A stretch of DNA of 64,000 nucleotides, from contig NC_088300.1 of assembly GCF_032854445.1 (NCBI RefSeq), positions 74,825,005 through 74,889,004 of the forward strand, written 5' to 3'. Shown piece by piece: positions 10,135 through 62,284 of the stretch (positions are counted from its first letter, which is position 1; each line of letters starts with the position of its first letter). Under the pieces are notes generated by a model that saw only the letters and a list, made by a program, of their open reading frames with translations, did not search any database and was not told where the DNA came from. A program made the position numbers and the translations under genes. The DNA is from Liolophura sinensis (lineage: Eukaryota > Mollusca > Polyplacophora > Chitonida > Chitonidae).

Positions 10135-10990
10135 GCGGTGGATGTTAATTGATGGCTGGGTGGGTGGATGGATATGTTGATTGAAGGTGGGACAAGTGGA
10201 TGGATATGTTGATTGATGGTTGGACAGGTGGGTGGACATGTTGATTGATGGTTGGACAGGTGGGTGGACATGTCGATTGATGAAGAGACGGATGGATAGA
10301 CATGCTGAATGATGAGTGAACAGACGGATGAATGTGTTGGTTGATGGTTGCATCGATGGATATATTGATTGATGCTTGAATGATGAATGGACATGTTGAT
10401 TGATGCTAGAACGGATGGATGGATATGTCGATTGACGGCTGAATGCGCGCATTTATATGATGATTGACAGGTGCAGACGTGGATGGATATGTTGAGTGAT
10501 GATTGAGCGAAAGGATATTTAGATTTATGGCTGGACCAGTGAATGGGCATGTTGATAGATAGACATGTTGATTGATGGTTAGACGGGTGGATGGATATCG
10601 ATTGATGGTTGGACGGATGGATGAATATGTTGATTGATGATTGGACAAATGGATGATATGTTGATTGATAATTGTACGAGAGATGGACATGTTAATTGAT
10701 GGCTGGACCTGTGGATGGATATGTCGATTGATAGTTGGACGGATGGATGGATATGTTGATTCATGGGTAGACGTGTGAATGGATATGCTGATTGATGGTT
10801 AAAAGCGTGGAAGGAGATGTTGATAGGTGGTTAGACGAGTGGATGAATATGTTGATTTGTGGTTAGATGGATGGATGGATATGTTGATTAATGGTGGGAC
10901 GGTTGAATAGATATGTTGATTGATGGTTGGACGGTTAGGTGGATATGTTGATTAATTGATTGGTGGAGTGATTTATTGATTGATTGATTG
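10135..10990. repeat. Minisatellite, 32-bp unit, about 26 copies
   Basis: The unit contains gattgatggttggacaggtg and ggtggacatgtt in tandem and becomes more degenerate towards the right, ending in short gattgattgatt runs. Because 32 is not a multiple of three, long open frames appear in all three minus-strand frames as the repeat rotates through them. Their Asn-Gln-His-Ile-His-Pro-Ser-like products are artefacts of the repeat. Confidence 0.95.
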
Positions 10991-40800: not shown

Positions 40801-43800
40801 AAATATTGTTATAATTTCCAAATGTTTCTGTTTTTGTATGCTACATGTCTTTGTATGTTGAATTATACCCTATAACGGTGTCTGTTCTGTTTCAGATGTA
40901 TCAATGGCAGTACCCTGCTTCACACAGCAGCCTATTTTGGTCAGGAGAACGTGGTGAAGGATCTACTGCAGCTGAGGGTGGATCCCAACCTGCTGGACTA
41001 TAAGCAGTCTACTCCTGTACACAGAGCCAGAGATCCCCACACCTTGAAGGTACGTGCTTACAGGTGAGACTAGAGATCCCCACACCTTGAAGGTACGTGC
41101 TTACAGGTGAGACTAGAGATCCCCACACCTTGAAGGTACGTGCTTACAGGTGAGACTAGAGATCCCCACACCTTGAAGGTACGTGCTTACAGGTGAGGCT
41201 AGCGACCCCCACGCTCTGAAGGTACGTGCTTACAGGTGAGACTAGAGATCCCCACGCTCTGAAGGTACGTGCTCACAAGTGAGACTAGAGATCCCCACAC
41301 CCTTAAGGTACGTGCTCACAGGTGAGGCTAGAGATCCCCACACCCTGAAGTCACATGCTTACAAGGGTTTCCAGAAATCCGTACAGCCAAGGATCCCCAC
41401 ACCCACAAGGTACATGATATCAGGGAGGCCAGAGATCCCCACACTCTGAAGGTATGTGCTCAGAGGTAAGGTTAAGGCTCCCCACACCCTGAGGGTACAG
41501 GCTCACAGGTGAGGCTAGCGACCCCCACACCCTGAAGGTACGTGCTCACAGGTGAGACTAGAGACCCCCACACCCTGAAGTCACATGCTTACAGGGGTTT
41601 CCAGAAATCCGTACAGCCAAGGATCCCCACACCCACAAGGTACATGATATCAGGGAGGCCAGAGATCCCCACACCCTCCAGGTATGTGGTTACAGAGAAT
41701 GTCAGAGATCTCCACACTCTAAAGGTACATGATTACAACTGATGTCAGAGAACCACACAGCCTGAAGGTACCAGGTTACTGGGGATGTCAGAGATCTCTA
41801 CACTCTGAAGGTATGTAGTTACTGGGGATGCCAGAGATCCACTCACCCTGAAGGTATCTGGTTACTGGGGATGTCAGAGATCTCCACACCCTGAAGGTAC
41901 TGGATTACAGGGGTTTCCCCGAGATCTGTACAGCCTGAAGATACATCACATTATACCTACATTTACAGAACACGTACCTAATGAAAACTGTGGTTTACTG
42001 TGCAGGTGTATTTGCTAATAAATTGCACAGGATCTACCTAATTGGATTTTTATGGTCACTTTGACCTAACCACTTTCATGTATAAGTGTGTGTATTAAAA
42101 GCAACTTGTTTTGTGTAAAGCAGCAAGCATCAGCCTGTATATAAACCATTCATATATGAGATTCACTACAACAGTATTGTGATAACTTCATCATGCTTTG
42201 TGAATTGATGATAATGATATGTGCTGGAAGGAAGTAACAGTTTAATTGTAGACAAAATGTTGAGCAAACCAAAATACAATAAAATGTTTTTAATTTAATC
42301 ATGCATATAAAAATTACCTGGAAGAGGCCTGGGTATTGTTGACTGTGAAGTTGTAGGGATGCCTATGTATGGATGACTGTTGTTGTTGTAGGCATTGCTG
42401 GACAGCGGAGGTCGTGTTGACACTGAGGACTCTGAGGGTAATACCCCGCTTCACGTGAAGTGTTATGGGGAGACTGGAGAGGACACAGCGGTGGAATGTA
42501 TAGAACTGCTGCTCGACCGTGGGGCTTCCCTCACCCACAGGAACAAACGGGTCAGTTGACAAGTCAAAATGTCAAGTCCAACTGATTTTGTCTAATAATT
42601 TTTAGCACTGATCTTATCAAATACAGAAGGGATTTTTAAGCTGAAGTATTTTGAGGCTATTTGAAAGAGGATGTGAAAGATATAATGTCTCTTCTGTTTG
42701 ATTTCTGTTGTGTTGTATTTCATTGAAAAGTTAATACATGCTGGCTTCCTCTGTTGGCAGATGTACATGGGAAGGTTGGCAGCAACTTGCAGATGGTCAT
42801 GGGTTTCCCCCAGGCTCTGCTCTGTTTCCCTCTGCCATAATACTGGCTGCCGTCATATAAGTGAAATATTCTTGAGTATGGCATAAAGCACCAATCAAAT
42901 AAATAAATAAATTACATTTTGTAATAAAAATATTAGACTTTAAAATATCATTACTTTTAAAATTATTATTATCATCAAGACTAAGACTTCTAGGAGGCTT
43001 GTTAAGTGCTGTTTATAGTTTATTAATTAGCTTGATCCCAGTGTCAATATGCCTTTACACAAGATGTGGGTTTGTGTTATTACCTTTGGGTAGAATGTTG
43101 TCTGCTGTGCTGATTGTATGCTGTGTGTTGTCCGCTGTGCTGATTGTGAACTGCGTGTTGTCCGCTGTGCTGATTGTGAACTGCGTGTTGTCTGCTGTGC
43201 TGATTGTGTGCTGCATGTTGTCTGCTGTGCTGATTGTGTGCTGCGTGTTGTCTGCTGTGCTGATTGTGAACTGCATGTTGTCTGCTGTGCTGATTGTGTG
43301 CTGCATGTTGTCTGCTGTGCTGATTGTGTGCTGCGTGTTGTCTGCTGTGCTGATTGTGAACTGTGTGTTGTCTGCTGTGCTGATGGTGAACTGCGTGTTG
43401 TCTGCTATGCTGATTGTGAACTGCGTGTTGGCTGCTGTGCTGATTGTGTGCTGCGTGTTGTCTGCTGTGCTGATGGTGAACTGCGTGTTGTCTGCTATGC
43501 TGATTGTGAACTGCGTGTTGGCTGCTGTGCTGATTGTGTGCTGTGTGTTGTCTGCTGTGCTGATTGTGAACTGCGTGTTGTCTGCTGTGCTGATTGTTAA
43601 CTGCGTGTTGTTTGCTGTGCTGATTGTGTGCTGCGTGTTGTCTGCTGTGCTGATTGTGAACTGTATGTTGTTTGCTGTGCTGATTGTGTGCTGCGTGTTG
43701 TCTGCTGTGCTGATTGTGTGCTGCGTGTTGTCTGCTGTGCTGATTGTGAACTTTATGTTGTCTGCTGTGCTGATTGTGAACTGCATGTTGTCCGCTGTGC

Positions 43801-46800
43801 TGATTGTGAACTGCATGTTGTCTGCTGTGCTGATTGTGTGCTGATTGTGTGCTGCGTGTTGTCTGCTGTGCTAATTGTGAACTGCATGTTGTCCGCTGTG
43901 CTGATTGTGAACTGCGTGTTGTCTGCTGTGCTGATTGTGTGCTGCGTGTTGTCTGCTGTGCTGATTGTGAACTGCGTGTTTGCTGTGCTGATTGTGAACT
44001 GCGTGTTGTCTGCTGTGGTGATTGTGAAATGCGTGTTGTTTGCTGTGCTGATTGTGTGCTGCGTGTTGTCTGCTGTACTGATTGTGAACTGCATGTTGTC
44101 TGCTGTGCTGATTGTGAACTGCGTGCTGTCTGCTATGCTGATTGTGAACTGCATGTTGGCTGCTGTGCTGATTGTGTGCTGCGTGTTGTCTGCTGTGCTG
44201 ATTGTGTGCTGGGTGTTGTCTGCTGTGGTGATTGTGAACTGCGTGTTGTCTGCTGTGGTGATTGTGTGCTGCGTGTTGTCCGCTGTGCTGATTGCGAGCT
44301 GCGTGTTGTCTGCTGTGGTGATTGTTAACTGCGTGTTGTCTGCTGTGCTGATTGTGTGCTGCGTGTTGTCTGCTGTGCTGATTGTGTGCTGTATGTTGTT
44401 CGCTGTGCTGATTGTGAAATGCGTGTTGTCTGCTGTGCTGATTGTGAACTGCGTGTTGTCTGCTGTGCTGATTGTGTGCTGCATGTTGTCTACTATGCTG
44501 ATTGTGTGCTGCGTGTTGTCTGCTGTGCTGATTGTGAAATGCGTGTTGTCTGCTGTGCTGATTGTGAAATGTGTGTTGTCTGCTGTGCTGATTGTGAAAT
44601 GCGTGTTGTCTGCTGTGCTGATTGTGAACTGCATGTTGTCTGCTGTGCTGATTGTGTGCTGTATGTTGTCTGCTGTGCTGATTGTGTGCTGTGTCTTGTC
44701 TGCTGTGCTGATTGTGTGCTGCATGTTGTCCGCTGTGCTGATTGTGTGCTGCGTGTTGTCTGCTGTGGTGATTGTGTGCTGTGTGTTGTCTGCTATGCTG
44801 ATTGTGCGCTGCATGTTGTCCGCTGTGGTGATTGTGAACTGTGTGCTGTCTGCTGTGCTGATTGTGTGCTGCGTGTTGTCTGCTATGCTGATTGCGAGCT
44901 GCGTGTTGTCTGCTGTGCTGATGGTGAACTTCGTGTTGTCTGCTGTGCTGATTGTGAACTTCGTGTTATCTGCTGTGCTGATTGTGTGCTGCGTGTTGTC
45001 TGCTGTGCTGATTGTGAACTGCTCTGCTGATTGTGGGCTGTATGTTTTCTGCTGTGCTGATTGTGTGCTGAATGTTATCTGCTGTGCTGATTATGTACTG
45101 TATGTTTTTTGCTGTGCTGACTGTGCACTGCCTGTTGCCAGGGCCTGATGGCGATCCACTGCTGTGCTATGCAAGGCCGTGTGGACGGTATACAGCTCCT
45201 GCTGCAGTATGATGACTGCAATGAGATCATCCACTCTCTGAACACGGAGGACAACAAACAGCCCCCCAGCGTCCTCCACCTCGCCCTGGCAAATGACTAC
45301 ACCATCTGTGCTCAGTGGTAAATGACAGAGCTGTCTGCCCACATTGTAAATAGAAAACTACAAATCAGAACTTCAGATTTATACTTTACATGTGCAAATG
45401 TATGCCACAGAGTATTAAACTGCAAAGTTTTAAACCAGGTTTATTTGGGAACAATATGGATTTAATAATCAGTATTAATCATACCCAAGAAGGCAAAGAA
45501 TGTGGATGTAGTTTTGGGTCTATGGTACCAAATGTGTACTTATAATGAATTTTAATCAATTTTTCACATCTTTAATCTGAAGACATTTTTATTCAGGATG
45601 ATGTTAGCAGATCCAGTGGAGTTACATGTGGTGTTATTTGCTGCTGACATCTGTTGTTTGTTCCAGGTTGATAGACAGTGGCTTCTGTTTTAAGGAAGGG
45701 GAACCAGATCACCTGCTGAGGAGGATTCTCACAGAACAGATTACAGTGTGAGTACCTGCATGGATACATATGTACAGCCTGATAGGTGTAATAATGAGCT
45801 TCCAACAGTAGCTCCCAGGAGGTCATTAGATCAAAGATAGTCAAGGACCAATGAGGTGGGGTGTTCAAATCCATCTCTTGATGACCTGATGGGAGTTTCA
45901 TCAGTTATTTGTTGTTATGAGAAAATTCAGTGGTGTCCTAGCTTCAGCCCGGATAAATCTTGATGCCTGTGGTTGTGAAAGTGCAAGACTCTCAAGAATA
46001 TTACACCATGTAATTAAATCATTTGTTTAATATATACACACTTAATTTACAGAATGGATCGAGAACAATTATTGATGCTTGTTTTAAATCATACATTTAA
46101 TAATTCACACATGAAATTTTGAATATGTTTTAAAGGAAACACTGCCACCTATCCTTATATCTTTTATTTTCCTCTCACAAAATATTATGGTTTTATAATA
46201 GTATTTTCAGGTTATATAGATAGTACTTGTCTTGGGTTTTACTTTATGAAATTTGACATTGACCAGTTGTACCTGTATGGGTGGCATGATTTTGTCATTG
46301 TGATTTTCCTACCTGTTCATTCCAGCTCTCACAGAGTAGATGTCATTAACTTTCTGTTGACGAATGGAGCTGATCCAAACCCACGCTACCCTGGAGGCAA
46401 CACGTACACTTATTTTCAAATATTTAAACTACTTGTATTATACTGCAAGGTTTCTGTGATTTTCACATTTTGTTACACTAATGGCAGTTCAAGTGACAGT
46501 TTCCATTTAATGCCCACATGTGTTTGTAAATGTGTTTTATGATTTACATCCAAAAATGATTAAGTTGTTTTTGTTACTGCCTGCCTTAGCAATGCAGAAT
46601 GAAAAGATACCGTATTATATATTATCAATAATTTCAATATGACATGACCAATATTAAAGATATCAGTTAATTTTCATTGTTAATTGGAACTTTGTAAGTT
46701 AATCATATATTAAGTGAATGAAAAATACATACATTACAAATGCACCATACATCTGCCTGGTTAAGGGGGTGGAGGTGGGGGTGGGGTGGGGGCACCATAT

Positions 46801-48731
46801 GACTGCCTGGTTAAGGGGAGGGGGTTGCACCATACGACTGCCTGGTTAAGGGGGGAGGGTTGCACCATTCGACTGCCTGGTTAAGGGGAGTGGGTTGCAC
46901 CGTACGGCTGCCTGGTTAAGGGGAGGGGGTTGCACCATACGACTGCCTGGTTAAGGGGAGGGGATTGCACCATATGACTGCCTGGTTAAGGGGGTGGGGT
47001 GCACCATACGACTTCCTGGTTAAGGGGGTGGGGTGCACCATACGACTGCCTGGTTAAGGGGAGGTGGTTGCACCATACAACTGCCTGGTTAAGGGGAGGG
47101 GGTTGCACCGTACGACTGCCTGGTTAAGGGGAAGGGGTTTGCACCATACGACTGCCTGGTTAAGGGGAGGGGATTGCACCATATGACTGCCTGGTTAAGG
47201 GGAGGAGGTTGCACCATACGACTGCCTGGTATAGGAGTAGGGGTTGCACCATACGACTGCCTGGTTAAGGGGAGGGGGTTGCACCATATGACTGCCTGGT
47301 TAAGGGGAGCGGGTTGCACCATACGACTGCCTGGTTAAGGGGAGGGGGTTGCACCATATGACTGCCTGGTTAAGGGGAGCGGGTTGCACCATACGACTGC
47401 CTGGTTATGGGGAGGGGGGTGTCAAAAAAATACAAAACAGTGTCATGTTACATGAAATTCTGTTGACTGTTTCAGTTGTTTACATTATGCATCCAGTATG
47501 AGTGGGGGGACAGAGATCCTGGAGTTATTGCTATCTTATGGAGCAGAGATTGACACCCCCAATAACGAAGGCTGCACCCCTTTGTTCTTTGCCACTAAGT
47601 CCAACAATCAGTTAGCTGCATGCATATTACTGGCTCATGGGGCAAACATGAAGTTCAAAAATGGCAGTGGTAAGCCTTAATTCATGTCTAATCCTACAGT
47701 TTCATTAAGAATGATCCAGAATTATATTGTTTACCTGGGTATCGTCTTACAGAAAATTAAATCATTTGTTACTACATGTACACGTGTTATTTTCCGTGTA
47801 ATATTACACAGACCACTGTGTAGTAATGCAACAGTTCTGTATAAGCTAGAGTACGGTAATGTAATTTCTAATGTCACATATTGACTGTGTATATGTCACA
47901 GATTTAGCAAAAAATGATTTTAGATTACATATGCTTTCTGCTATACTATATGTAACATGCTTTGTGTTTTACCTGTGAAGGTGTCACAGCATTTGATCAC
48001 ATCGCAGACTTTGAAGAGTGGGTGGACTCTGGGTACTTCACTGATGAGGTCAAGGCTAGACTCAAAGGTAACACAGAGTTATCTCCAAAGGACGTCTACA
48101 AATAGGTCACTGTTTATTATCAGGCCAGTGTGGACATACAGCATAAACCCATCTTATTTTAAACATTTCCACTTAAAGCAATAGACTCACATGTTGCCAT
48201 GAGTATAAATGTGGATTGAGCAGGTTTTCATTGGAATTCTGAAAATTGTTCACATGAAAATGTTGTTCAGAAATTCAGCTGTTTCTGTGCTCTGATCTTG
48301 GCATCTTTTGGCTATGGGTTGTCAAAATAAGAATAAGCCTTTATCGTTCCATAAATAGTATTGTACTACTTATACATGTATATGTTTTGTATTATGTTTG
48401 CGATTGTTTGACCGTTCCCTGATGCTTAACCAAATGCTTTCTGCCTTTACTACATGTAGCTTACAGCCTGAAGCATGCTCGGGATCTCATCCGTGCTATA
48501 ACAAAGAAAGTGAAGGGCAGTGAGCGACGTGGACAGAGGAACACTGTGTGGGATAAAGCAAGCACTTCTAGTTCAGCGGGAAGCTCCCAGCAGGCCATAG
48601 GTTGGCACAGAGACCTGGGTCCCAAAACCACAGCACTCCCTCTCCCATCCTCAACAAAAAGCGCCATCTGGTCTCTGCCTGCAGCACCTGGAACACACCT
48701 ACCTCCCCTGAAGTGTATAGGTGAGGGGTAA
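28821..48731 (+). CDS. Tandem calponin-homology and ankyrin-repeat protein, 26 exons
   Basis: Exons: 28821-28993, 29335-29458, 30460-30570, 31502-31606, 32495-32635, 32873-32905, 33131-33225, 34149-34230, 34593-34682, 35193-35319, 35590-35669, 36131-36235, 37033-37162, 37819-37895, 38153-38395, 39286-39396, 39774-39873, 40266-40386, 40896-41049, 42392-42550, 45142-45317, 45667-45747, 46326-46403, 47476-47669, 47981-48067, 48460-48731. All use GT-AG sites with matching phases and sum to 3249 nt (1082 residues plus stop). Residues about 8-125 resemble a calponin-homology domain (RIRGFTAWVN, VFHLLWRLICYDIWF); about 203-312 a second one (LADSRVLCGLINSFVP, DPMSVCSYFCYFFMVAFKF). A Lys-rich linker lies near 142-152. 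Residues about 515-966 form roughly nine ankyrin repeats (TALHWACRHGN, GNTPLHVKCYG, NTCLHYASS). The tail is Ser-rich. A cytoskeletal scaffold is inferred. An in-frame stop at 28791 supports the ATG. The 3' end is uncertain because a donor-like site (ATAG|GTGAGG) precedes the stop. Confidence 0.88.
33281..33318 (+). other. Possible frame-breaking cassette exon
   Basis: A 38-nt segment is framed by a good acceptor (tttaattgacag) and a good donor (gtgagt) in intron 7 of the calponin-homology/ankyrin gene. If included after exon 7 (phase 2) it gives an immediate TAA, so it is not in the main model, which skips it and keeps the second calponin-homology domain intact. Confidence 0.35.
33648..34052 (+). 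mobile_element. Two SINE family A copies in a row (one near full length, one partial)
   Basis: The first (33648-33912) starts with aggggcctctgtggctgagg and ends gtgaaatatccttgagtatgg plus an aaataaatc tail. The second (33925-34052) starts within the element at gatggtcatggg and ends in ataaataaat. Both lie in intron 7, about 100 bp before the acceptor of exon 8. Confidence 0.85.
34795..34915 (+). mobile_element. Family C/A SINE fragment
   Basis: ggcatctgataaagggtggc, then accaataaacctgcccttg and agaaatattcttaaaaccc with an aaatgaataaataaa tail. It lies in intron 9 of the calponin-homology/ankyrin gene. Confidence 0.55.
36340..36480 (-). mobile_element. SINE family A fragment, minus orientation
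   Basis: ttgattgattggtgttatatg, then tgtactcatgaatatgtcac and a degraded gaaaacaggg segment. Together with the plus-oriented copy at 36,633-36,812 it forms an inverted SINE pair within one intron. Confidence 0.6.
36535..36812 (+). mobile_element. Family C fragment followed by a SINE family A copy
   Basis: 36535-36625 carries gatgaaggttggtggttcac (family C). From 36633 the family A body follows: gtgagttcaagtcgagctc, tcccaccattatatggctgc, gtgatatattcttgggtat and an aatcaaataaatg tail. It lies in intron 12. Confidence 0.75.
41029..41945 (+). repeat. Exon-derived minisatellite, 43-bp unit, about 20 copies
   Basis: The first unit overlaps the last 21 nt of exon 19 (agagatccccacaccttgaag) and its donor gtacgtg. 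The following units repeat this 21-nt exon piece plus about 22 nt of intron (gtacgtgcttacaggtgag). The first seven or eight copies are nearly identical; later ones diverge, and a segment of about 110 bp (41,334-41,444) recurs near 41,574-41,684 as a higher-order repeat. Each copy keeps a donor-like AAG|GTACGT or related site and often an acceptor-like cttacag. Reading through any copy meets TGA soon after the true donor. Confidence 0.95.
42735..42915 (+). mobile_element. SINE family A, 5'-truncated, plus orientation
   Basis: It begins at catgctggcttcctctg, continues through tcatgggtttcccccagg and ends gtgaaatattcttgagtatgg with a caaataaataaataaa tail. It lies in intron 20 just before the 30-bp array. 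Confidence 0.85.
43095..45141 (+). repeat. Minisatellite, 30-bp unit, about 68 copies, abutting exon 21
   Basis: The unit alternates between versions containing ctgctgtgctgattgtgaac and ctgctgtgctgattgtgtgc, each followed by tgcgtgttgt. It fills the second half of intron 20. The last unit is modified to end ctgcctgttgccag, which is the acceptor of exon 21, so the array supplies that splice site. Since 30 is a multiple of three, several frames on both strands stay open for hundreds of codons: VLSAVLIVNC-like or CCADCELRVV-like on plus, TQFTISTADN-like on minus. These are not genes. Confidence 0.97.
46748..47420. repeat. Minisatellite, 35-bp unit, about 19 copies
   Basis: The unit reads gcaccatacgactgcctgg followed by ttaaggggagggggtt. 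It fills the right part of intron 23 and stops about 55 bp before the exon 24 acceptor. The minus-strand ORF inside it (MVQPAPLNQAVIWCNP-like) is a repeat product. Confidence 0.95.
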
Positions 48732-50276: not shown

Positions 50277-51290
50277 TTACACAGACAAGTCTCTCGTACA
50301 GGCTGCTACCTCTGAGTCAGGGACGAAGATAAACACAAAGGAGAGCGGAGGAAGAATGACTTCTGGGGCGGGTTGGATAGCCTGGGACAAGGGAGGTAAC
50401 TCGCCGGAGGTCATCTCCGCTAATGTGCCATACAGATTTACTTTCCAGAAACATACCAGTTCATTCAGCACTAAGGAAACACCATTTTTGGAGGTAATCA
50501 AGGTTACATAGCTTCTTTCCCACCAGTGTTTAAGGCTTTTATTCAAATTTGCCATTGCCAGGAGAAGATACAATGAAGTACCGACATACGCCCCTAAAGC
50601 AGCCCATAAAAGATTGATGGCAACTTTGTAGACCAGAAACAGGCACTGATAAGCTGAAAATATGCGCTGTCAAGACATGAAGTGTTAAACTGATCCTGCA
50701 CTGCAACTGAACTGTCGATAGCTGTAAACGAACGTGTGGCGATGGGAGAACCACCTAAACAAAGTCACTGGTCTTTCCCAACCTGAGCATTCTTGCTTAA
50801 ACATCAGTGAAACTCAAAACAATGGGTTAATATTAATTGTTACAAAAGTGGCAATGTTTAGTCACCTTACCTTACCTTTCTTTGCCCGATTCGATAAATA
50901 TACATAACGTCCTTCTGGGGCTTACTGAGAACAGCTTACCTAATGCAGGTAGACCCTGAGTTTCTCCTATATTTGTCCTATACTCAGAACAACTCACTTA
51001 CGGCTGGTACAGTGACTGTAGACCCTGAGTTTCTCCTGTGATGTCCTGTACTCAGAACAACTCACCTACTGCTGGTACAGTGACTGTAAACGCTGAATTT
51101 CTCTTGTGATGTCATGTACTCAGAACAACTCGCCTACTGCTGGTACAGTGACTGTAGACCCTAAGTTTGTCCTATGTTTGTCCTGCACCCAGAACAACTC
51201 ACCTGCTATTGGTACTGTGACTTCAAACGCTGAGTTTCTCCTGTGTTTGCCCTACAATAACTGCAAAGTAAGCCACTTTATTTCTTCAGC
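50277..51290 (-). pseudogene. Decayed heparanase copy (terminal exon plus exon-8-type array)
   Basis: The minus-strand frame ending at TAA (50277) reads KVNLYGTLAEMTSGELPPLS and later LPPLSFVFIFVPDSEVAACT, clearly the heparanase C-terminal exon seen in the two neighbouring copies (VNLNGK-LELISG-LPPLP...AFIVVP...AAAC). Where those copies have the acceptor CAG, this one has CTG (tttctgg instead of tttcagg). No penultimate exon (SGYG-ITFY type) is recognisable upstream. Only an array of about five diverged 68-69-bp units derived from exon 8 remains at 50,945-51,290. No AATAAA follows the stop on this strand. I infer a tandem duplicate that lost function; an alternative last exon of the neighbouring gene is possible but would need another acceptor. 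Confidence 0.7.
50945..51265 (-). repeat. Exon-8-derived minisatellite in the heparanase remnant, about 5 units
   Basis: Units of 68-69 bp contain (plus strand) agaacaactcacctactgc and tggtacagtgactgtagacc, the same unit as the array next to exon 8 of the intact gene at 54.9-55.5 kb but more diverged. Its presence in both copies suggests that the array existed before the duplication or was copied with it. Confidence 0.85.
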
Positions 51291-51857: not shown

Positions 51858-52215
51858 ACCGGCCCGGTTAGCACAGTTGGTAGAGCGTCCGCTTCGGGAC
51901 CGGTAGATCCAGGATCAATCCTTGATCGAGTCACACCTAAGACTTTAAAAGAGGAAGTTGTAACTTCCTCGCTTGGCGTTCAGCATGAAGGGGATAGTGC
52001 AACGACTGGTTGACCCGTATCAGTATAATGGCTGGGGCGGCTTGCTTGACTTCGGTAAGTCGTCTCAGTGAGGCAGCACTAAATAAAAGAGCGGTGGAAA
52101 TCCGTCCTGCAACAAGGAGGCACATTACACGTACATGCACCCTAATGATTCCTTCGTCGTCATATGACTGAAAAATTGTTGAGAACGACGTTAAACCCCA
52201 AGCACTCACTCACTC
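51858..52215 (+). mobile_element. SINE family B, full length, with target-site duplication
   Basis: The tRNA-like head (ccggcccggttagcacagtt, with an A-box-like tagcacagttgg and a B-box-like region around ggatcaatcc) is followed by a body with gaggaagttgtaacttcctc and a tail cgacgttaaaccccaagc plus cactcactcac. The 10-bp sequence ttcatctatt flanks both sides (51848-51857 and 52216-52225), a target-site duplication. It is a retroposed tRNA relative, not a functional tRNA gene. Confidence 0.9.
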
Positions 52216-52231
52216 TTCATCTATTTAAAGC

Positions 52232-52812
52232 CATACTCGGGGGTCCTCGGAGGCCAAGAAGCCTCTCATCAATGCTGTCGCTGTGAGTATAATTCCAGTT
52301 CATGCTGGCTTCCTATCCGGCCTTGGGGTTTTAACGTCGTGCTAAACAATTTTTCAGTCACATGACGGCCAAGGAATCTTTACGGTGTACGTAATGTACC
52401 TCCTTGTTGTTGGGCGGATTCCCACCGCTTTTTTATCTAGTGCTGCTTCACTAAGACGACTTACGAAGGCAAGTAAGCTGCCCCGCCCGAGCCATTACAG
52501 CGTTGCACTATCCCATTCATGCTGAACACCAAGCGAGGAAGTTACAACTTCCTCTTTTGAATCTTAGGTGTGACTCGACCCAGGATTGATCCTGGATCTA
52601 CCGCTCCCGAAGCGGATGCTCTACAAACTGTGCTATCCGGGCCGGTTCCGTAAGTGGGAATTAGGTCTGTCAACAACCCACGGATGGTCGTGGGTTTCCC
52701 CCGGGCTCTGCCCGGTTTCCTCCCACCATAATGCGGGCGCCGTCGTATAAGTGAAATATTCTCGAGTACGGTGTAAAACATCAACCAAATACATAAATAG
52801 ATAAATAAAGCC
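52232..52812 (+). mobile_element. SINE family A interrupted by a SINE family B insertion
   Basis: The head (ctcggaggccaagaagcctc to tgctggcttcctatccggcc) stops at 52318. The remaining body (gtaagtgggaattaggtctg, tgggtttcccccgggctctg, gtgaaatattctcgagtacgg and an aaatagataaataaa tail) resumes at about 52647. The gap is exactly a reverse-oriented family B element, so family B was active after this family A copy inserted. Confidence 0.88.
52319..52646 (-). mobile_element. SINE family B, minus orientation, nested
   Basis: It reads ttggggttttaacgtcgtgc, then gttacaacttcctcttttg, then the tRNA-like head in reverse (gctatccgggccgg). It is an inverted partner of the copy at 51,858-52,215, about 100 bp away, so the two could form a long hairpin. 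Confidence 0.9.
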
Positions 52813-53426: not shown

Positions 53427-56400
53427 TCACTTCTCCATACATGCAGCTGCTCCAGCATCTGGGACGATCAAAAACGCTAAGGAGAATGGTGGAAGAGTGA
53501 CAAGTGTGGAGGTAAGAATAGCCGGCGGCATGGGAGGTAACTCTCCCGAGATCAGCTCCAGCAGTTTACCGTTCAGATTTACCATTCTGGAACATAACAA
53601 AACCAATGTCAGAGCCATTTGGCCAAATAGGCCTACACTTTCGTACTTTCCCGAAGTGATGGACCAGTATTTGTCCATCTGACCACAGTGTCTTATCCGT
53701 GGTTTCAAACTGGCGCTGCTATTGAACGAGATATTTCGCTTCAATGATTTAAGAGCTAAGCCACAACCTGAAAGAATCAATTCAGATGAACTAACAAAGA
53801 CAGTTAACGTCTTTAAATTGAACTACTAACCTTGTCACTAGTGTCGAATTATCACCGGAGGTGAGTACATACACATGAAAGTCAATACCCGTGAACTGAG
53901 AGAAGGATAATCCCACTGAGTTGTTGTACAGGTTCATCATGTAGAAGGTGATTGATCCCGGACCGTATCCAGACCTGCAATAACCAGAAAAAAAATACCA
54001 GGTTTGTGTATGGTGGACAATTCGTATGTTACCAATATATACAGATCGGACTTCGTTGTCTACGGTCATCTAATCGGTCATGTATTCCGACTTCGTTTTC
54101 CACGGTCATCAAGAGGCCTCCGTGACCGAGGTGATTAGCCCGCCAGAGTGATCTATCCACGGTCACCTATTCGGACTTCGTTATCCACAGTCGTCTATTC
54201 CAGTTTTGTTGTCCACGGTCATGTAGGCCTATTCGGAGGTCGTTGTCCACGGTCATCTATTCGGAGGTCGTTAACCACGGCCATCTATTCGAAGGTCTTT
54301 GTTCACGGTCATCTATTCGGAGGTCGTTAACCACGGCCATCTATTCGAAGGTCTTTGTTCACGGCCATCTATTCGGACTTCGTTATCCACGGTCATCAAG
54401 GGGCCACGGTGTCCACGGTGGTTAGCGCGCCAGCGAGGCGCAATGACTCAGGAGCCTCTCACTAATGCGGTCGCTGTGAGTTCAAGTCGAGCTGGCTTCC
54501 TCTCCGGTCGAACATGGAAGGTCTGCAAGCGACCTCCAGATGATCGTGAGTTTCCTCCCATCATCTCTTCGGACTTCCTTATCTACGGTCATCTCTTCGG
54601 ACTTCGTTGTCCACATTCATCCTTATGGGTTTCCTTATCCACTGTCATCTTTTCAGACTGATTTGTCCACGGTCCTCGTTCAAGGCCATGTAACACAAGC
54701 CGTAAGGATGTCTTCTCCAGGGTATGGGAACGTCGTTTACTAAACCTGTCTATCGGAATGTCGTTCTTAACGGCTATCTATTCAGATATCATTGTCTACG
54801 TCTATCTGACATTAGGTCGTCATCCATGTCTCCAAGTATCAGGTCGTGGTTGTCTACGACTATCTAAGGGGGTGTCATTGTCGGAGCAACTCACCTACTA
54901 CTGGTACAGTGAGTGTAGACCTTGAGTTTCTCTTCCGTTTGCCCTGTATTCAGAACAACTCACCTACTACTGGTACAGTGAGTGTAGACCCTGGGTTTCT
55001 CCTCCGTTTGCCCTGTACTTAGAACAACTCACCTACTACTGGTACAGTGACTGTAGACCGTGAGTTTCTCCTCCGTTTGCCCTGTACTCAGAACAACTCA
55101 CCTACTACTGGTACAGTGACTGTAGACCCTGGGTTTCTCCTCCATTTGCCCTGTACTCAGAACAACTCACCTACTACTGGTACAGTGACTGTAGACCCTG
55201 AGTTTCTCCTCCGTTTGCTCTGTACTCAGAACAACTCACCTACTACTGGTACAGTGACTGTAGACCGTGAGTTTCTCCTCCGTTTGCCCTGTACTCAGAA
55301 CAACTCACCTACTACTGGTACAGTGACTGTAGACCGTGAGTTTCTCCTCCGTTTGCCCTGTACTCAGAACAACTCACCTACTAATGGTACAGTGACTGTA
55401 GACCCTGAGTTTCTCCTGTGTTCGTTCTGTACTCAGAACAACTTACCTAATACTGGTGCAGTGACAGTAGACCCTGAGCTTCTCCTGTGTTTGTCCAGTA
55501 CTCAAAACAGTCTCCCCCACCAGGTTCTTGTACAGAACTGTCAACCAGTAATCCTGCGGGGTAAATGTAGAGATTAGCCACTTCTGACAAATGTGATGCT
55601 AGTATTTATTGGATAAATCTTTCCTGCCTTCAATATCCCAGTGTTGCGAGGAACGCAAGGCGGTTTTTTCTGTGGCGGCCTTTTCTGTGGAGTTACTAAA
55701 AGCAAAAATAAAAAAAGAAAGATCGCAAAAAATAACGAACTAAAAATATGTTGAAACACAAACGCTGACTTTAAGTTGATAGATAACAAGTGAGATAGGA
55801 AATGGACACTTTAGCTATATGGCATTATATTGAGAGCCTACAAATAACCTCCTCTTGCTATAAATGATGGATGGTCGTGGGTTTTCTCCGGCTCTGCCTG
55901 GCTTCCTCTCAACATAATGCTCGCCGCTATCGTATAACTGAAGTATTTCTGAGTACGGGGTAAACTCTGAAAACTTAAATAAATATAAATGATGCACTGG
56001 CTTTGGGTACATTTAATGCTGTAACATTTGTCGTGTATTCATCAAGGCACAGTAAATTTCCGTTGAGGTTTGTACTTTGATTTAAGTACTTTGTGACACA
56101 TTTCAGAAAGTTTCAGCTTTCATTTGACTGACACTGCAGCATATAAATAATCCCGATGAAGTTGAATATTGACACTTTTAATGCGACAATGACCTGTTTC
56201 CACATCTACATGTACATCGAGAATACCTCCAAAGGTAACGTACTGGGTTAGGACTGTAGACGCCATCAGAGTAATCCACCAGGCCGTAATTTCCACCCAC
56301 AAACTCCTGCCGCATCACTACCTCAGCCCCGTAATACGCCGCCAATCCGAGTTTGTCCAACCACCTATCATGTTAAAGCAATTTTTTTACAGGTAAACCA

Positions 56401-59400
56401 CAAATATGGGATGTTAGAATGTAGCATACTTGATTCAAACTTCGTGTTTTACCATACCGAATAATTCTTCAGAAACATTTAAAGTATTTATAACAAAATG
56501 AACAACGGCAAAAATGTGGCCTTTAAAGGGGAAAACTATGTAGCTACGCCGTTAGATAAATTCAGAGGACATATAAGGTGTCAGCACTAACAGCGACGGA
56601 TTCATTATGATATCAGTGCCTAGGAAGAAAAGTAACGGGTACAGTAACGATGGATTCGTTATGATATCAGGTCTTAAGAAGAAAAGGAATAGGCGGGGAG
56701 GTCTGTGTGCATTGGGCGGGGGGGGGGGATAGGGGGTAGCGATGGGTACATTATGATATCAGATTCTAGGAAGAAAATTAATGAAGGTGGAAGGGCGATA
56801 ATTACATTATGATATCAGCTCCTGGGAAAAAAGTAATGGGGAGAGGAACGATGGCTGCATTATGATATTAGTTCATAAGAAGAAAAGTTATGTGGTATAA
56901 GCGATGGCTGTATGATGATATCAATTCCTAGGAAGAAAAGTAATGGAGGAGCAGCCATGGCTACATTCTGATATCAGTTCCTAGGAGGAAAAGTAATGGG
57001 ATGGGGAGCAACAATGGCTACATCATGTCAGATTCTGCAAAGAAAATTTAATCCCTTACATGAATCCTGCGACGAACGTGTTTGAGATTCCAGGTGCACC
57101 CCCGCCGTAAGCCGTGCTGGTCTCCCCTACCCAGAAACTTTGAGTGCCGTGAGAGACATTGCGTAGGATTTTCTGAGCTGACACCATATCGTAGATAAAA
57201 CTGTCCAACTTGGCAGGATCCACAAAGTCCTGCGGTTGGGCAGTGTGACCGTTCATGTAATAGCTGGAATGGAATACTACAGATAGAGAGGCAACTGAAT
57301 GAAGCTAAATCTTTGCCAAACCCAATATATTGGGAAATGGCCATTTGTACGAAGCCTTCTTGTTACCTGTAAGTAACTTCCACCTTCTTGAATATATCGT
57401 TCGACCGCCTGTTTGTACGTTTGTGTCCTTTTCAGTCAAAAGATCCTCGAATTTGAATAAATTTAACATAGTGGACCAATTATTAAGATTTCTGGCGCAT
57501 GCAGAATCATTTAGTGTGCCATATTTGAAAGTATGTATACCTAAGCAAAAAAACTTTCTAAATACCTTTAGTCACTAGTAACTCTCCAAACGTCTGTGAC
57601 TTACTGTCAGCACCCCACTAAAACGGACAGCCATCGTAAAAGTGAAAAACTCTTATGTATACCATTAAACAGCAATTAAATAAATAAAAATAATATTAAT
57701 AAAACCTCTACGTACATTCAATGAAGCGTACTAGATTTTTTATTCGTGATTAATGTGGTATATAATATATACCATTAACTTTGTATAACGAATGCAAAAT
57801 ATACATGTACATGTATAATTATCTTGAAGCTTTCTATAGATTCTTGGCCACCTGAACGTCTGAACTGACTGATTCTGATTGTACTCAACGTTGTAACACA
57901 GACAAAGGAGGTACAAATAATAACTGCCACAGAACCTTGGTTACTTACTGGTGGAAAGTCATGGCATTGATATGCTCCGCTCCAGTTTTCATGAAGCTGA
58001 AAACAAAAATAGAGCATAAAATATTAATACCACTGAAGAAGTGACGTTTGAAAACTGGAAACTTATTACTTGTCACCATTTTCCCTTTCCTACATCCCAG
58101 GAATTCTGGTCCAAGCTGTACAGTATTGTGATAGTTCAGCTTTGTAGGTCAGGTGAAATATTAAATAAATGTTCTCCACTGGGTAGCCCCACAACATAGA
58201 CGGAAATATGCTCCCTGTGGTCAGTTGGCCGATGGATAAAGGTATATGTAATCTGTGTAGCCTTTATCCAAAGATGCATGATATCAACTGTCACACATGT
58301 GTCCAGTAGATTTTACGTAGCAATGCTGCAGGTGGGTCTTACCTTAGTCCTATACTTCAGTGCATGAAAAAAGGCAAGTTATTCAACTGAGGAATTTATT
58401 TCAAAACTGTTTTTTTTTCTTTTTCAAAAGAGGTTTTCATTCCAAAGCTGAATGGTTCTTAAATACAACATATATGACTTTAATCGGCCTTACTTCTGCA
58501 GGTATGACTGAGTGAAGGAGTTGCTGTCGCCGGTAGTGTCAGGTCCGACCAGACGTCGTGATCTGAAGGCCGGCATGGAGTCCATCAGTTGGCGGAGAGT
58601 GCCGAAATCCCGACCCAGCTGTTGGGGATCCACTTTCCGATTGTACTGACTCGAGTATATATCGGGCTCTGTTGCAGACATTGGCAACATATAAGTTATT
58701 CTGAATGACATGCGAATCATTAACTGAACTGTAATTACCGGACTGTGTTACATCTCCAAAAAATAAAACATCATGATAGTGTACTCTGACAAGAATACCA
58801 AGAAGTAGAAAGAATCATCTTACGACAATAACAAGGTTATTACTAGAAGTCGGATAAGGAAGAGATTTAGAGTGATGTAATAGTAAGAGCAGAAAATTAT
58901 GGAAAATTAGTGTATGGTGAGAGGTAAGATGAAGAGCAAGGAGAGCTAGTGTTCTCGGAGGAGAGAGTAAGGAGAATTAGTGTAGCGTCGAGAAGTAGGG
59001 AGAATTGGTGTACTCCAAGGAGAGGGTTAATAAGTCAGGAAAATTAGTACAGCTGCGTGAAGAAGGTAGAGGAAAAAGAATTAGTTACTGCTTCTGAATT
59101 TACTGTTAAAAAGAAGATCGAGGAGTGGGAGAATTAGTGTAGAGCAGATGGGCGAAAGGTGGGGAGAATTGGCGTGGTTTGATAAGTACTGTAAGGAGCT
59201 AGCAGAATTAGTGTAGAGGTAGAAGGGAGAATTAGTGTAGTTTGAGAAGGAGGATAAGGAGCAAACAGAATTAATGTATTCTGTTATGAGGTTTAGGAGT
59301 AAGGAGAATTAGCGTACTCAGAGAAGAATGTGATGAATAAGGAGAATTAGCGTACTCAGAGAAGAATGTGATGAATAAGGAGAATTAGCGTACTCAGAGA

Positions 59401-62284
59401 AGAATGTGATGAATAAGGAGAATTAGCATATTCAGGAAAGAAAGTGATGAATAACGAGAATTAGCGTACTCAGAGAAGAATGTGATGAATAAGGAGAATT
59501 AGCATATTCAGGAAAGAAAGTGATGAAAAACGAGAATTAGCGTACTCAGAGAAGAATGTGATGAATAAGGAGAATTAGCATATTCAGGGAAGAATGTGAT
59601 GAATAAGGAGAATTAGCATATTCAGGAAAGAAAGTGATGAATAACGAGAATTAGCGTACTCAGAGAAGAATGTGATGAATAAGGAGAATTAGCATATTCA
59701 GAGAAGAATGTGATGAATAAGGAGAATTAGCATACTCAGAGAAGAATGTGATGAATAAGGAGAATTAGCATATTCAGAGAAGAATGTGATGAATAAGGAG
59801 AATTAGCATATTCAGGGAAGAATGTGATGAATAAGGAGAATTAGCATACTCAGAGAAGAATGTGATGAATAAGGAGAATTAGCATACTCAGAGAAGAATG
59901 TGATGAATAAGGAGAATTAGCATATTCAGGGAAGAATGTGATGAATAAGGAGAATTAGCGTACTCAGAGAAGAATGTGATGAATAAGGAGAATTAGCATA
60001 TTCAGGAAAGAAAGTGATGAATAACGAGAATTAGCGTACTCAGAGAAGAATGTGATGAATAAGGAGAATTAGCATATTCAGAGAAGAATGTGATGAATAA
60101 GGAGAATTAGCATACTCAGAGAAGAATGTGATGAATAAGGAGAATTAGCATATTCAGAGAAGAATGTGATGAATAAGGAGAATTAGCATATTCAGGGAAG
60201 ATTGTGATGAATAAGGAGAATTAGCATACTCAGAGAAGAATGTGATGAATAAGGAGAATTAGCATACTCAGAGAAGAATGTGATGAATAAGGAGAATTAG
60301 CATACTCAGAGAAGAATGTGATGAATAAGGAGAATTAGCATATTCAGGGAAGAAGGTTGATGAGTAGGGAAAATTAACGTACTCATCCAAGAAGGCTGGT
60401 GAGTAAGCAGAACTAACCCAGTCGGAGAAGGTCAAGACAGAAAACCAAACAGATGGCATGTACAATGAGCAAAAGAGAGTACTGAATTCTATGGAATAGG
60501 TGTGAGGTGAGATGTAGCGAAAAGTTACCATTGCCTAACTCGAGATCCATACGGTACCCTCTGTCAGCTGAGTATTTCATCAGTTCAATAGCATTTGCCG
60601 GATCCCAGGCTGTGCCAGGACGATATAGGCTGTTCAGACCAAATATAAAGCTCAGGTTGGCCTCTTTGACAAATAGATTCAGCTCATCCCAATCTGCAGC
60701 TATAACCACAAAAGGAGCCGCATATGTCATTTCCCTATCATACATGTATTTCCCCACGTTACACTGCCAGCAGATGATTCCAAATATGATAATGGTCTAC
60801 TGCCTCAATAACAACATCATAGAGAATAGGACATGAACATAATGTGGGCAAGTATCAATGTTATTCAGCTTAGGCACTTTTTAATACTGAAATACGTATG
60901 TGGATTTTAAATTTAAAGAAATCAGTCATCACACAGTATGATTTCTGAAACATTCTGTTTCACGCGTACAAATACATGCATATTTTAGACATAGGAAGCG
61001 CAAACAGTATATTTATGACACAGTTTGATGTATGACGTAGGCCCTAGATACAGTAAACTTATGACACAGTATAATGTACTTGTATATCACCCTATTATGC
61101 ATATATAAGCTATATTTTATGACATTGTGGTATATCACGAATATATAGACAGCATATTTTATGACAAAACGATGTATATCACGAATATATATACAGTATA
61201 TTTCATGACACACTGTGATGTATTATGTATGCAGAGGTAGCCGTTACACAGAGTTGTACGATGAATGACAAATAGGCTCAGGCTGATGTATATGTATACG
61301 TGACCACTGAAAAAACCACGATATAATTACTCCAGCTAAGGACAAAGTTTAAAATACAGCGAGTAAGATCGACAATCTCGGTCACATGAGTAAAATGTAG
61401 GCTAAAACTCACATGTTATTGTAGAATTTGCAATGGCTGTCGTGGAATTCCCCACCTGATATATGAGGGAGTCGGCCGTAGTACCTCCCACCCTCAGGTA
61501 GGCTGGGTACAGAGCCTTAGCCAGGGTGACAGCCACAGGAGACCTGGGAATAAGACCAGGAGCCATATATAATTTGCGTTAATCAAACACATGTGCTAGC
61601 CTCATTGCACGTGCTGACTGAATGACTGAATGGTTATGGATTAACGCTACTTTGGCACTACTGCAGCCATATCGATGTATACTGAGATTCCATGCCAAAT
61701 TTGTAAACATACTAGCTAAGGGGAAACTGAATGTGAAACCGGTATATTGTCTACATTTGACCGGAGAAGCATAAATGGTTTAAATTATAAAGCTAAGTTA
61801 CGTTCAGGATTGTAACTACCACAAGCCTTAAGATGTGAATACCCTAGTAGTTACAATCAACTTAGCCAACGATTACTTTGTGGAACAGAGCATTTAATGC
61901 AAACATATGGATTGCAAGCTCAAGTAAAATAGCTCCACGATTTCTTCCCTACAAATTTCATCTTTCATGTTGGATTTGCCAAAGTTAAAATTTCTATCAA
62001 TTAATTTTCTGTTAATGAATGTCCACATGTGCACGTGTAAAGTTAAGCGTTGCTTTTACTCTTCCCTAATTTCAGTACACGCACTGTTGGTATTACCTGG
62101 GGTTGAACGCCTCCCATTTGCCTATGATGATCCCAGTATCCAAGGTAACGCTTACAAACTTATCACTGGTCACAGACACGACACGGTCTGGCTGGACGGT
62201 CACTTCCAAAACGGCCGGCCACACGGACTGCTGAGTCAGCAGAAATGAGAGAAGAACCAACAACCACATAGCTGGTGACACCAT
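53427..62284 (-). CDS. HPSE: Heparanase (endo-beta-glucuronidase, GH79), 10 exons
   Basis: Family role: cleavage of heparan sulfate chains outside the cell or in lysosomes. Exons in order of transcription: 62284-62097, 61543-61413, 60699-60529, 58668-58494, 57996-57949, 57263-57060, 56364-56244, 55553-55447, 53974-53831, 53586-53427. Phases match throughout and give 482 residues plus stop. A signal peptide ([14 protein letters not shown]) opens the protein. GH79 hallmarks: [32 protein letters not shown], the acid/base Glu164 in ELGNEPD, TFHHYYMNG, the nucleophile Glu285 in [15 protein letters not shown], then [20 protein letters not shown] and the C-terminal beta-domain. The human enzyme is 543 residues, with a linker that is cut out; here exons 2 and 3 join directly and the linker is essentially absent, suggesting a single-chain enzyme. 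Exon 3 could instead start at 60693 (also in frame). The ATG has a strong context (gccatgg). Confidence 0.93.
54040..54700. repeat. Degenerate 28-bp tandem repeat split by a SINE
   Basis: Copies of acggtcatctattcgg plus acttcgttgtcc or aggtcgttaacc recur from 54040 to 54395 and again from 54565 to 54690. A family A SINE (54398-54565) separates the blocks. Located in intron 8 of the heparanase gene. ORFs here are repeat products. Confidence 0.8.
54398..54565 (+). mobile_element. SINE family A, 3'-truncated, inside the 28-bp repeat
   Basis: gtggttagcgcgccagcg, then caatgactcaggagcctctc, then tgtgagttcaagtcgagctgg and ttcctctccggtcg. It stops near tttcctcccatcat, where the 28-bp repeat resumes. 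A smaller head fragment lies at 54108-54150. Confidence 0.8.
54890..55446 (-). repeat. Exon-derived minisatellite, 69-bp unit, 8 copies beyond exon 8
   Basis: On the minus strand each unit is about 60 nt copied from the 3' end of heparanase exon 8 (ggagaaactcagggtctac, gtcactgtaccagtagtag) plus the first 9 nt of the intron (gtgagttgt). The genuine exon end at 55447 is the first copy. The eight decoy copies downstream nearly all keep AG|GTGAGT. Using a later donor would add an in-frame TGA. The unit is a multiple of three, hence the long plus-strand ORF here, which is spurious. Confidence 0.95.
55862..55990 (+). mobile_element. SINE family A 3' fragment
   Basis: gatggatggtcgtgggtttt, then cctctcaacataatgctcg, ctgaagtatttctgagtacgg and an aaataaatataaat tail. 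Located in intron 7 of the heparanase gene. Confidence 0.75.
56570..57045. repeat. Degenerate tandem repeat, about 60-bp unit, about 8 copies
   Basis: The phrase cattatgatatcagttcctag with aagaaaagtaatggg recurs every 55-65 bp, with substitutions and small indels. It fills most of intron 6 of the heparanase gene and begins close to the donor of exon 6. Confidence 0.85.
57608..57692 (+). mobile_element. SINE tail fragment
   Basis: ggacagccatcgtaaaagtg, then aaaaactcttatgtatacc and a caattaaataaataaaa tail. Located in intron 5 of the heparanase gene; old and truncated. Confidence 0.5.
58895..60380. repeat. Minisatellite, 38-bp unit, about 28 regular plus older degenerate copies
   Basis: From about 59290 the unit gagaagaatgtgatgaataa plus ggagaattagcatactca repeats very regularly, with two common sub-types (gcatattcagg and gcgtactcaga). 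From 58895 to 59290 there are degenerate, irregularly spaced relatives sharing gagaattagtgta. Located in intron 3 of the heparanase gene; ends about 150 bp from the exon 3 donor. Confidence 0.95.

What the first reader, a model, noticed from the sequence alone, without database searches (positions are those of the whole stretch)
54890..55553. A second, independent exon-plus-donor minisatellite in heparanase exon 8
The 69-bp unit equals about 60 nt of exon 8 plus 9 nt of intron, including AG|GTGAGT, repeated eight times beyond the real donor. It has the same architecture as the array in the ankyrin gene but an unrelated sequence. Two cases in one 64-kb window suggest a shared mechanism, such as replication slippage or unequal exchange seeded at GT-rich donor sites, and not one accident.
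Basis: partly seen in the sequence, partly recalled or inferred. Interest (0 to 1): 0.78.

Follow-up and report, generated by a model that had tools for sequence, protein, structure and literature searches.

The report
Repeated exon ends beside splice sites
In a chiton, the last 60 bases of a heparanase exon, with the splice signal that follows, are copied many times into the next intron, and similar copies sit beside splice donors of several other genes sampled, so the genome offers natural tests of how cells pick the right splice site.

Summary
On the minus strand, a heparanase exon (55447-55553) ends at a GTAAGT donor, followed by eight 69-bp units (9 nt of intron plus 60 nt of exon end), each ending at another AG|GTGAGT.

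It is not a lone accident. The same array, with the same junction, sits in six tandem heparanase copies (about 5 to 57 units). TRF finds no array at this donor in three distant heparanases.

The genome is the chiton Liolophura sinensis. In 19 genes chosen without regard to repeats, 8 of 39 arrays span a splice donor (1.8 expected, P about 3e-4; two weaker cases removed, 6 of 37, P 0.006) and none an acceptor. In a test without a repeat finder, 8 of 157 donors and 0-1 of 155 acceptors have a neighbouring copy.

Copied donors diverge about like the rest of the unit, so decoys look neutral. In half of the arrays tested, copies match the exon better the nearer they lie to it. I read these as 'mirages', known from amphioxus: tandem duplications tolerated because the first donor is used and (less certain) renewed from the exon. 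Seeding at the GT itself is not supported. Splicing was not observable.

The parts
55447..55553 (-). Heparanase exon ('exon 8' of the finding), founder of the array; its last 60 nt are the exonic part of the unit
   Evidence: acceptor CCCCGCAG|GATTAC, donor ATTAG|GTAAGTTG
54887..55446 (-). Array of eight 69-bp units (9 nt intron + 60 nt exon end) starting at the real donor and ending in one more donor-like GTGAGTTG
55441..55448 (-). Real splice donor AG|GTAAGT of the exon
50943..51261 (-). Same array family in a neighbouring, decayed heparanase copy (paralog A): about five diverged units, front part of the exon lost
53831..53974 (-). Next heparanase exon ('exon 9') of the same gene; the far end (53831) is approximate
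53427..53586 (-). Last heparanase exon ('exon 10') with stop codon
41029..41911 (+). Array with the same architecture in an ankyrin gene: 43-bp unit, 21 nt exon end + 22 nt intron, donor AAG|GTACGT

Best explanation
The feature is a 'mirage': a minisatellite whose unit spans an exon-intron boundary. A tandem duplication copied the last 60 nt of a heparanase exon together with the first 9 nt of its intron in an ancestor of a local heparanase gene cluster (inferred from the shared junction). The array then came to differ in length among the gene copies (shown). It is most likely tolerated because the spliceosome uses the first donor, so the copies are intron; a transcript spliced at a later donor would meet a stop codon at once (the frame is shown, the splicing is inferred). 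The copied donors look like neutral passengers (divergence close to that of the rest of the unit in the large arrays). In this chiton such donor-spanning arrays are a recurrent outcome, seen at about 5% of sampled donors and more often than random array placement predicts (shown in a sample). The likeliest reason, which is inferred, is that selection keeps the exon copy intact, so the array has a permanent clean template at one end and is renewed from it, whereas intronic arrays decay. Acceptor-spanning arrays are rarer, perhaps because an upstream acceptor copy would disturb splicing.
For: Unit anatomy and exon homology. All 115 genome matches of the unit reported (a lower bound) lie on C6 74.876-74.931 Mb, in six arrays with A 5, B 9, C 31, D 6, E 29, F 58 profile matches, the first of which is the exon itself in B, C, D and F. 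Those four directly follow an intact copy of the exon; A and E have lost its front part. All six array consensuses begin GTGAGTTGTTCTGAG, the same junction. TRF finds no array at this donor in three distant heparanases L010, L011, L012. Donor positions diverge like the rest in the large arrays: C 0.168 v 0.174, E 0.186 v 0.182, F 0.056 v 0.061. Read-through of the real donor meets a stop in every unit of B. Unselected sample: 8 of 39 arrays span a donor, 0 an acceptor, 1.82 expected for each, P about 3e-4. TRF-free: 8 of 157 donors v 0 or 1 of 155 acceptors, Fisher 0.007 or 0.036; shuffled donor probes 1 of 3140. Polarity: identity to the exon falls with distance at P<0.05 in 5 of the 10 arrays tested and rises so in none; order correlation averages -0.33 in 9 donor arrays against +0.05 in 18 other arrays, P 0.04. 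Exon F is closer to its own units (mean 0.94) than to any other exon (at most 0.92).
Against: The enrichment depends on how array edges are drawn: with raw TRF edges it was 5 of 34, P 0.043, against 7 of 34, P 7e-4, after edge extension. By gene set it is clear only for CCT (4 of 17, P 0.006); ALDH 3 of 17, P 0.055; the three further genes 1 of 5, P 0.16. Two of the eight are in one gene. One exon (T8) was annotated by hand after its array had been seen, without it 7 of 38, P 0.0015; one ALDH exon (D4) rests on a weak match (E 0.28), without both 6 of 37, P 0.006. Polarity is absent or reversed in some arrays (C: +0.40, P 0.03). In the small arrays donor positions diverge more than the rest (A 0.200 v 0.137, B 0.074 v 0.052, D 0.130 v 0.054). 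In paralogs B, C and D the exon is not specially close to its own units. Absence of acceptor arrays is not significant by itself (P 0.15). No RNA evidence was available.
Confidence: 0.7

Rival explanations
1. Chance overlap: the genome is so full of minisatellites that some will cover an exon end, with no special tie to donors.
For: Arrays are dense: 39 in the gene bodies of 19 genes, 42 partly overlapping TRF rows in the window. Arrays that do not span a boundary show no significant pull toward the donor end of introns (29 of 31 could be placed; 16 nearer the donor; P 0.22). With raw TRF edges the excess is weak (P 0.043).
Against: 8 of 39 observed v 1.82 expected, P about 3e-4; 6 of 37 without the two weaker cases, P 0.006; 8 of 157 donors v 0-1 of 155 acceptors in a test that uses no repeat finder.
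Confidence: 0.15
2. Mutational seeding at donors: the exon-intron junction itself (GT-rich motif, transcription-linked breaks or bound U1) starts tandem duplications more often than other sites.
For: Donor excess and lack of acceptor cases; a two-copy donor duplication in an ALDH gene (D8) and a 3-copy one in glycogen phosphorylase (R2) suggest that new ones still arise.
Against: Breakpoints are not at the GT: in heparanase they lie about 60 nt into the exon and 9 nt into the intron, in others at varied distances. Non-spanning arrays are not significantly drawn to the donor end.
Confidence: 0.2
3. The repeated donors are kept for a function, such as tuning splicing, or holding U1 on the intron to block early poly(A) sites.
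For: In array F 45 of 57 downstream copies score at least as high as the real donor, and 50 of 58 rows keep GTRAGT. Donor positions are slightly better conserved than the rest in C and F.
Against: Those differences are tiny (0.168 v 0.174; 0.056 v 0.061), and donor positions diverge more than the rest in A, B, D and E. Decoys are decayed in CCT6 (T8; median score 3.5 v 7.9 real) and weaker in D1 (8.5 v 11.3), and the only copy in D8 has lost its GT.
Confidence: 0.05
4. An assembly artefact inflated or invented the arrays.
For: Tandem repeats are a classic assembly problem; the longest array is nearly 4 kb.
Against: The published assembly is from HiFi reads averaging 8,347 bp (passages of PMC11068029); copies differ from each other, and six gene copies share the junction but differ in unit number and sequence. 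Raw reads were not checked.
Confidence: 0.03

Closest known systems
Amphioxus 'mirages' (minisatellites across exon-intron boundaries in Adh3, globins BflGb6 and BflGb9, PGBD5, troponin C)
   Same: Tandem units hold exon end plus intron, many with AG/GT signals; unit lengths of the same order (Adh3 10-72 bp); unequal unit numbers; reported not to disturb splicing (PMC3087553 section 16; PMC3902484 one passage).
   Different: Here a mollusc (chiton), not a cephalochordate; present in six tandem paralogs with one junction; sampled rate about 5% of donors; bias to donors, while both boundaries are reported in amphioxus; in half of the arrays tested the copies nearest the exon match it best. Splicing is untested here.
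Variable internal tandem repeats at exon-intron boundaries of human segmental duplications
   Same: Minisatellites at exon-intron boundaries of recently duplicated genes, changing in copy number between paralogs (PMC2812944 passages).
   Different: There some repeats lead to new introns or altered transcripts; here every unit of the window array carries an immediate stop codon if read through and no transcript was examined.
Intron gain by tandem genomic duplication of AGGT-containing exon sequence
   Same: Tandem duplication that copies a splice-site-like AG|GT (PMC4974935 and PMC3443670, search listings with the start of the abstract only).
   Different: As I recall that model, the duplication lies inside an exon and creates an intron; here a real donor is copied into an existing intron.

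Membership tests
Mirage (boundary-spanning minisatellite, as described in PMC3087553) | Tandem repeat unit spans an exon-intron boundary | tested here: met
   60 nt exon end + 9 nt intron per unit, eight units after the real donor
Mirage (boundary-spanning minisatellite, as described in PMC3087553) | Units carry AG/GT splice signals | tested here: met
   AG|GTGAGT in 8 of 8 decoys of the window array; GT kept in 110 of 137 aligned rows over six arrays, a few of which are edge rows holding the exon itself
Mirage (boundary-spanning minisatellite, as described in PMC3087553) | Concerted evolution within the array, edge units escaping | tested here: inconclusive
   Within-array identity exceeds between-array identity for B, D, F (0.89-0.90 v at most 0.86) but not for A, C, E (0.73 v 0.73-0.78)
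Mirage (boundary-spanning minisatellite, as described in PMC3087553) | Length instability between haplotypes or in somatic cells | not testable with these tools
   One haploid assembly, no reads; only differences between paralogs, about 5 to 57 units
Mirage (boundary-spanning minisatellite, as described in PMC3087553) | Normal splicing despite decoy sites | not testable with these tools
   No RNA data; read-through meets stops in every unit of the window array
Intron gain by tandem duplication | A new intron at a position absent from relatives | tested here: not met
   Three distant heparanases of the same genome, without an array there, also have the two exons apart, by about 350-630 bp; exact splice positions were not compared
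Heparanase (GH79) | Sequence similarity over the C-terminal exons and GH79 N-terminal domain | tested here: met
   PDB heparanase E 3e-19; PF03662 above cut-off in two upstream exon frames (30.5 and 24.0 bits v 23.1); Pfam finds nothing in the C-terminal piece alone

The most novel reading that the evidence does not exclude
Exons act as protected seeds for minisatellites. Because selection keeps the exon copy intact, an array that includes an exon end always has a clean template and is rebuilt from the exon side, so donor-spanning arrays outlive intronic ones and build up to about one in twenty donors of the chiton genome, giving thousands of natural tests of donor choice among near-identical sites and a standing supply of copied splice sites for exon-end shifts.
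Probability: 0.3. Interest if true: 0.75.

Novelty: new member of a known kind. Interest (0 to 1): 0.55.

Why it matters
Mirages were discussed as possibly general in cephalochordates. Finding them at about 5% of sampled donors in a chiton would make them a wider animal phenomenon and a measurable one. Gene copy F has 45 of 57 downstream copies whose donor scores at least as high as the real one, so it asks directly how the spliceosome takes the first of many near-identical sites. The donor bias and the best-match-near-the-exon order give a testable account of how such arrays persist.

Tried and rejected
Independent origin in each heparanase copy: rejected, since all six arrays share one junction. 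Functional maintenance of the decoys: rejected as the main account because donor positions are not clearly better conserved than the rest (slightly lower divergence in C and F, higher in A, B, D, E). A general pull of arrays to the 5' end of introns: tested, not significant (29 of 31 non-spanning arrays, P 0.22). An array in glycine decarboxylase (R1) looked purely intronic to TRF but proved to be derived from the exon end and donor when read and in the TRF-free test; it is counted in the second test and not in the first, and it stands among the 18 control arrays (rho +0.70). An array ending at an acceptor in CCT3 (T5 1-449) has at most a few exon bases and was not counted; an array starting at the second intron base in CCT6 (T8 2289) has no exon part and was not counted.

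Sampling: from the PF00118 search (50 matches) I took nine intron-bearing loci and left out the two long single-frame loci (C5:5566404, C6:7942446; the first was fetched as L025 only to serve as a query). The HSP60 locus was dropped from the CCT set and used later with E. coli GroEL. All eight loci among the 14 ALDH matches (a capped list: 13 of 97 candidates scored) were used; one (D5) showed a single exon and gave no boundary. Exon ends come partly from splice-site scoring and partly from match ends, and can be off by a few bases. One exon (T8 3140-3245) was added by hand after its array had been seen, and the D4 exon at 2642 was kept on a weak match (E 0.28). The exon-distance test covered ten arrays; D4, D8, R1, R2 and heparanase A and E were not in it. 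The order test could use 9 of 13 donor arrays and 18 of 31 others. Gene labels CCT1, 3, 5, 6, 8 are from recall.

Papers: PMC3087553 passages and section 16; PMC3902484 one passage; PMC2812944 passages; PMC11068029 passages and tables; PMC12441733 whole text; PMC4974935 and PMC3443670 listing only. Canestro et al. 2002 on Adh was not held and is known only through those papers. That such arrays are not in print for molluscs rests on searches of one open library only.

Full report
WHAT IS THERE. TRF reports a 69-bp array at 54887-55509 (93% matches, score 1043). On the minus strand the sequence reads as an exon that ends ...CACCAGTATTAG|GTAAGTTG at window 55447/55446, then eight complete 69-nt units, each 9 nt of intron start (GTAAGTTGT in the first, GTGAGTTGT in the others) followed by 60 nt that copy the exon's end, and finally one more GTGAGTTG. 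The exon and the next two give a peptide that aligns with heparanase 50 kDa subunit chains in the PDB (E 3e-19); upstream exon frames match PF03662.

ONE JUNCTION, SIX GENES. A genome search with the unit reports 115 matches, all within C6 74.876-74.931 Mb (such counts are lower bounds). They form six arrays, all on the strand of a local heparanase gene cluster: A 5, B 9 (this finding), C 31, D 6, E 29 and F 58 profile matches (in B, C, D and F the first match is the exon itself). Copies B, C, D and F have an intact exon directly before the array; A and E have lost the front of the exon. All six array consensuses begin GTGAGTTGTTCTGAG, the same junction, so one founding duplication before the gene duplications is the simplest reading; spread by gene conversion is not excluded. 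Paralog A lies in this same window (50943-51261). Three distant heparanase loci of the same genome (L010, L011, L012) have the three exons, and TRF finds no array at this donor; an array decayed beyond TRF's reach is not excluded.

THE ORGANISM. The assembly has 609,464,459 bases in 632 contigs. Lengths of C1, C3, C5, C7, C8, C11 and C12 equal scaffolds in the published table of a chiton genome (96,433,062; 27,489,247; 19,479,325; 60,359,117; 58,388,612; 32,819,725; 31,077,156); C6, C10 and the total differ from it by a few kb to 31 kb (82,489,547 v 82,493,220; 36,632,598 v 36,638,032; 609,464,459 v 609,495,693). It was published as Liolophura japonica and corrected to L. sinensis (PMC12441733, whole text). 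Eight matches in a row to mollusc haemocyanin (PF14830) on C8 agree.

IS IT MORE THAN CHANCE? Exons were found with a profile of archaeal thermosomes (29 proteins) and with E. coli proteins. Over 19 genes, 177 exons and 158 internal boundaries there are 39 arrays. Eight span a donor and none spans an acceptor; 1.82 of each are expected if founding units fell at random on collapsed introns and boundaries (P for 8 or more 3e-4). The donor cases: CCT5 (109 bp), CCT3 (60 bp, and 66/88 bp), CCT6 (36 bp), two ALDH genes with 64 and 39 bp (the second with only about 4 exon bases), a third ALDH with two copies of 37 bp, and glycogen phosphorylase with 3.3 copies of 28 bp.

CAVEATS OF THAT TEST. With raw TRF edges the first 16 genes gave 5 of 34 (P 0.043); extending edges by alignment gave 7 of 34 (P 7e-4). 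By set: CCT 4 of 17 (P 0.006), ALDH 3 of 17 (P 0.055), the last three genes 1 of 5 (P 0.16). One CCT6 exon was added by hand after its array had been seen; without it 7 of 38, P 0.0015. The ALDH exon of the 39-bp array rests on a weak match (E 0.28); without both, 6 of 37, P 0.006. Two cases share the CCT3 gene.

A TEST WITHOUT TRF. A 20-nt probe across each boundary (at most 4 mismatches) was sought within 400 nt: 8 of 157 donors have a downstream copy, 1 of 155 acceptors an upstream copy (24-nt probe with 5 mismatches: 8 of 157 and 0 of 155), and shuffled 20-nt donor probes matched in 1 of 3140 trials. Fisher P is 0.036 and 0.007; without the hand-added CCT6 exon 7 of 156 v 0 of 155, P 0.015. 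This test adds glycine decarboxylase, whose old array is read from the donor onward, and loses the ALDH case with few exon bases.

DO THE DECOYS MATTER? In the six heparanase arrays, divergence at the donor positions (-3 to +6) against the rest is A 0.200/0.137, B 0.074/0.052, C 0.168/0.174, D 0.130/0.054, E 0.186/0.182, F 0.056/0.061. The three large arrays look neutral; the three small ones lean toward faster change but have few units, and edge rows that hold the exon are included. Copies scoring at least as high as the real donor: F 45 of 57, C 14 of 30, D 4 of 5, ankyrin 10 of 20, CCT5 3 of 7, CCT3 1 of 6 and 10 of 11, CCT6 4 of 24, ALDH D1 0 of 12, B 0 of 8 (scoring matrix from memory). 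Reading through the donor in B meets a stop at once in every unit, so a transcript spliced at an inner donor would carry an early stop. Whether any is made is unknown.

WHY DONORS? Non-spanning arrays are not significantly concentrated at the donor end (29 of 31 placed, 16 nearer the donor, P 0.22), so a general 5' hot spot is not shown. Identity of each copy to the exon falls with distance at P<0.05 in five of ten arrays tested (B, F, ankyrin, CCT5, CCT6) and rises so in none. Against array consensus, the order correlation averages -0.33 in nine donor arrays and +0.05 in 18 other arrays with enough units (P 0.04); C goes the other way (+0.40), and the control set includes the glycine decarboxylase array (+0.70) that proved to be donor-derived. 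Exon F is nearer its own units (0.94) than any other exon (at most 0.92), while B, C and D show no such tie. I take this as moderate support for renewal from the exon side, with selection on the exon keeping the template clean. Junctions do not sit at the GT: about 60 nt upstream and 9 nt downstream in heparanase; the young glycogen phosphorylase array has TGTTA at both ends of the duplicated piece, and the two-copy ALDH duplication has no microhomology that I can see.

COMPARISON WITH WHAT IS KNOWN. [quoted passage not shown] PMC3902484). They were discussed as possibly general in cephalochordates and as a route to new introns. I therefore file this as a member of that kind, two of whose features (instability, splicing) I could not test. 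New here, as far as searches of one open library show, are the molluscan host, the sampled rate, the donor bias, the shared array in a gene cluster, and the best-match-near-the-exon order.

Noticed in passing
   Followed up: yes
L008 and L009 (C6:74927391-74931271): Heparanase copy F carries about 57 units (nearly 4 kb) after its donor; 45 of 57 downstream copies score at least as high as the real site.
   Followed up: partly
L005 and L007 (downstream flanks of C6:74889411 and C6:74916544): Heparanase copies C and E share almost the same sequence after the array, as do D and F more loosely, so the cluster probably grew by segmental duplication.
   Followed up: no
L069 position 8195-8268 (C12, 26506500-26516400): A two-copy, 37-bp duplication across an ALDH donor (91% match) whose second copy has lost its GT; looks like a newborn array.
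   Followed up: partly
L081 position 54-146 (C6:3255554-3255646): Glycogen phosphorylase has a 28-bp exon-plus-donor array of 3.3 copies with the sequence TGTTA at both ends of the duplicated piece.
   Followed up: partly
window 59300-60385, 43096-45137, 46792-47418, 10142-10953: Other large minisatellites in the window (units of 38, 30, 35 and 32 bp); not checked against exon ends.
   Followed up: no
window about 51860-52200 and 52330-52650: Two related elements in opposite orientation that begin like a tRNA gene (GGTTAGCACAGTTGGTAGAGCG...), perhaps a SINE pair; read by eye, no search made.
   Followed up: no
L025 (C5:5566200-5568300): A 621-codon uninterrupted reading frame with a chaperonin (PF00118) match, very divergent by eye; one scan of a prokaryote collection found no relative.
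   Followed up: no
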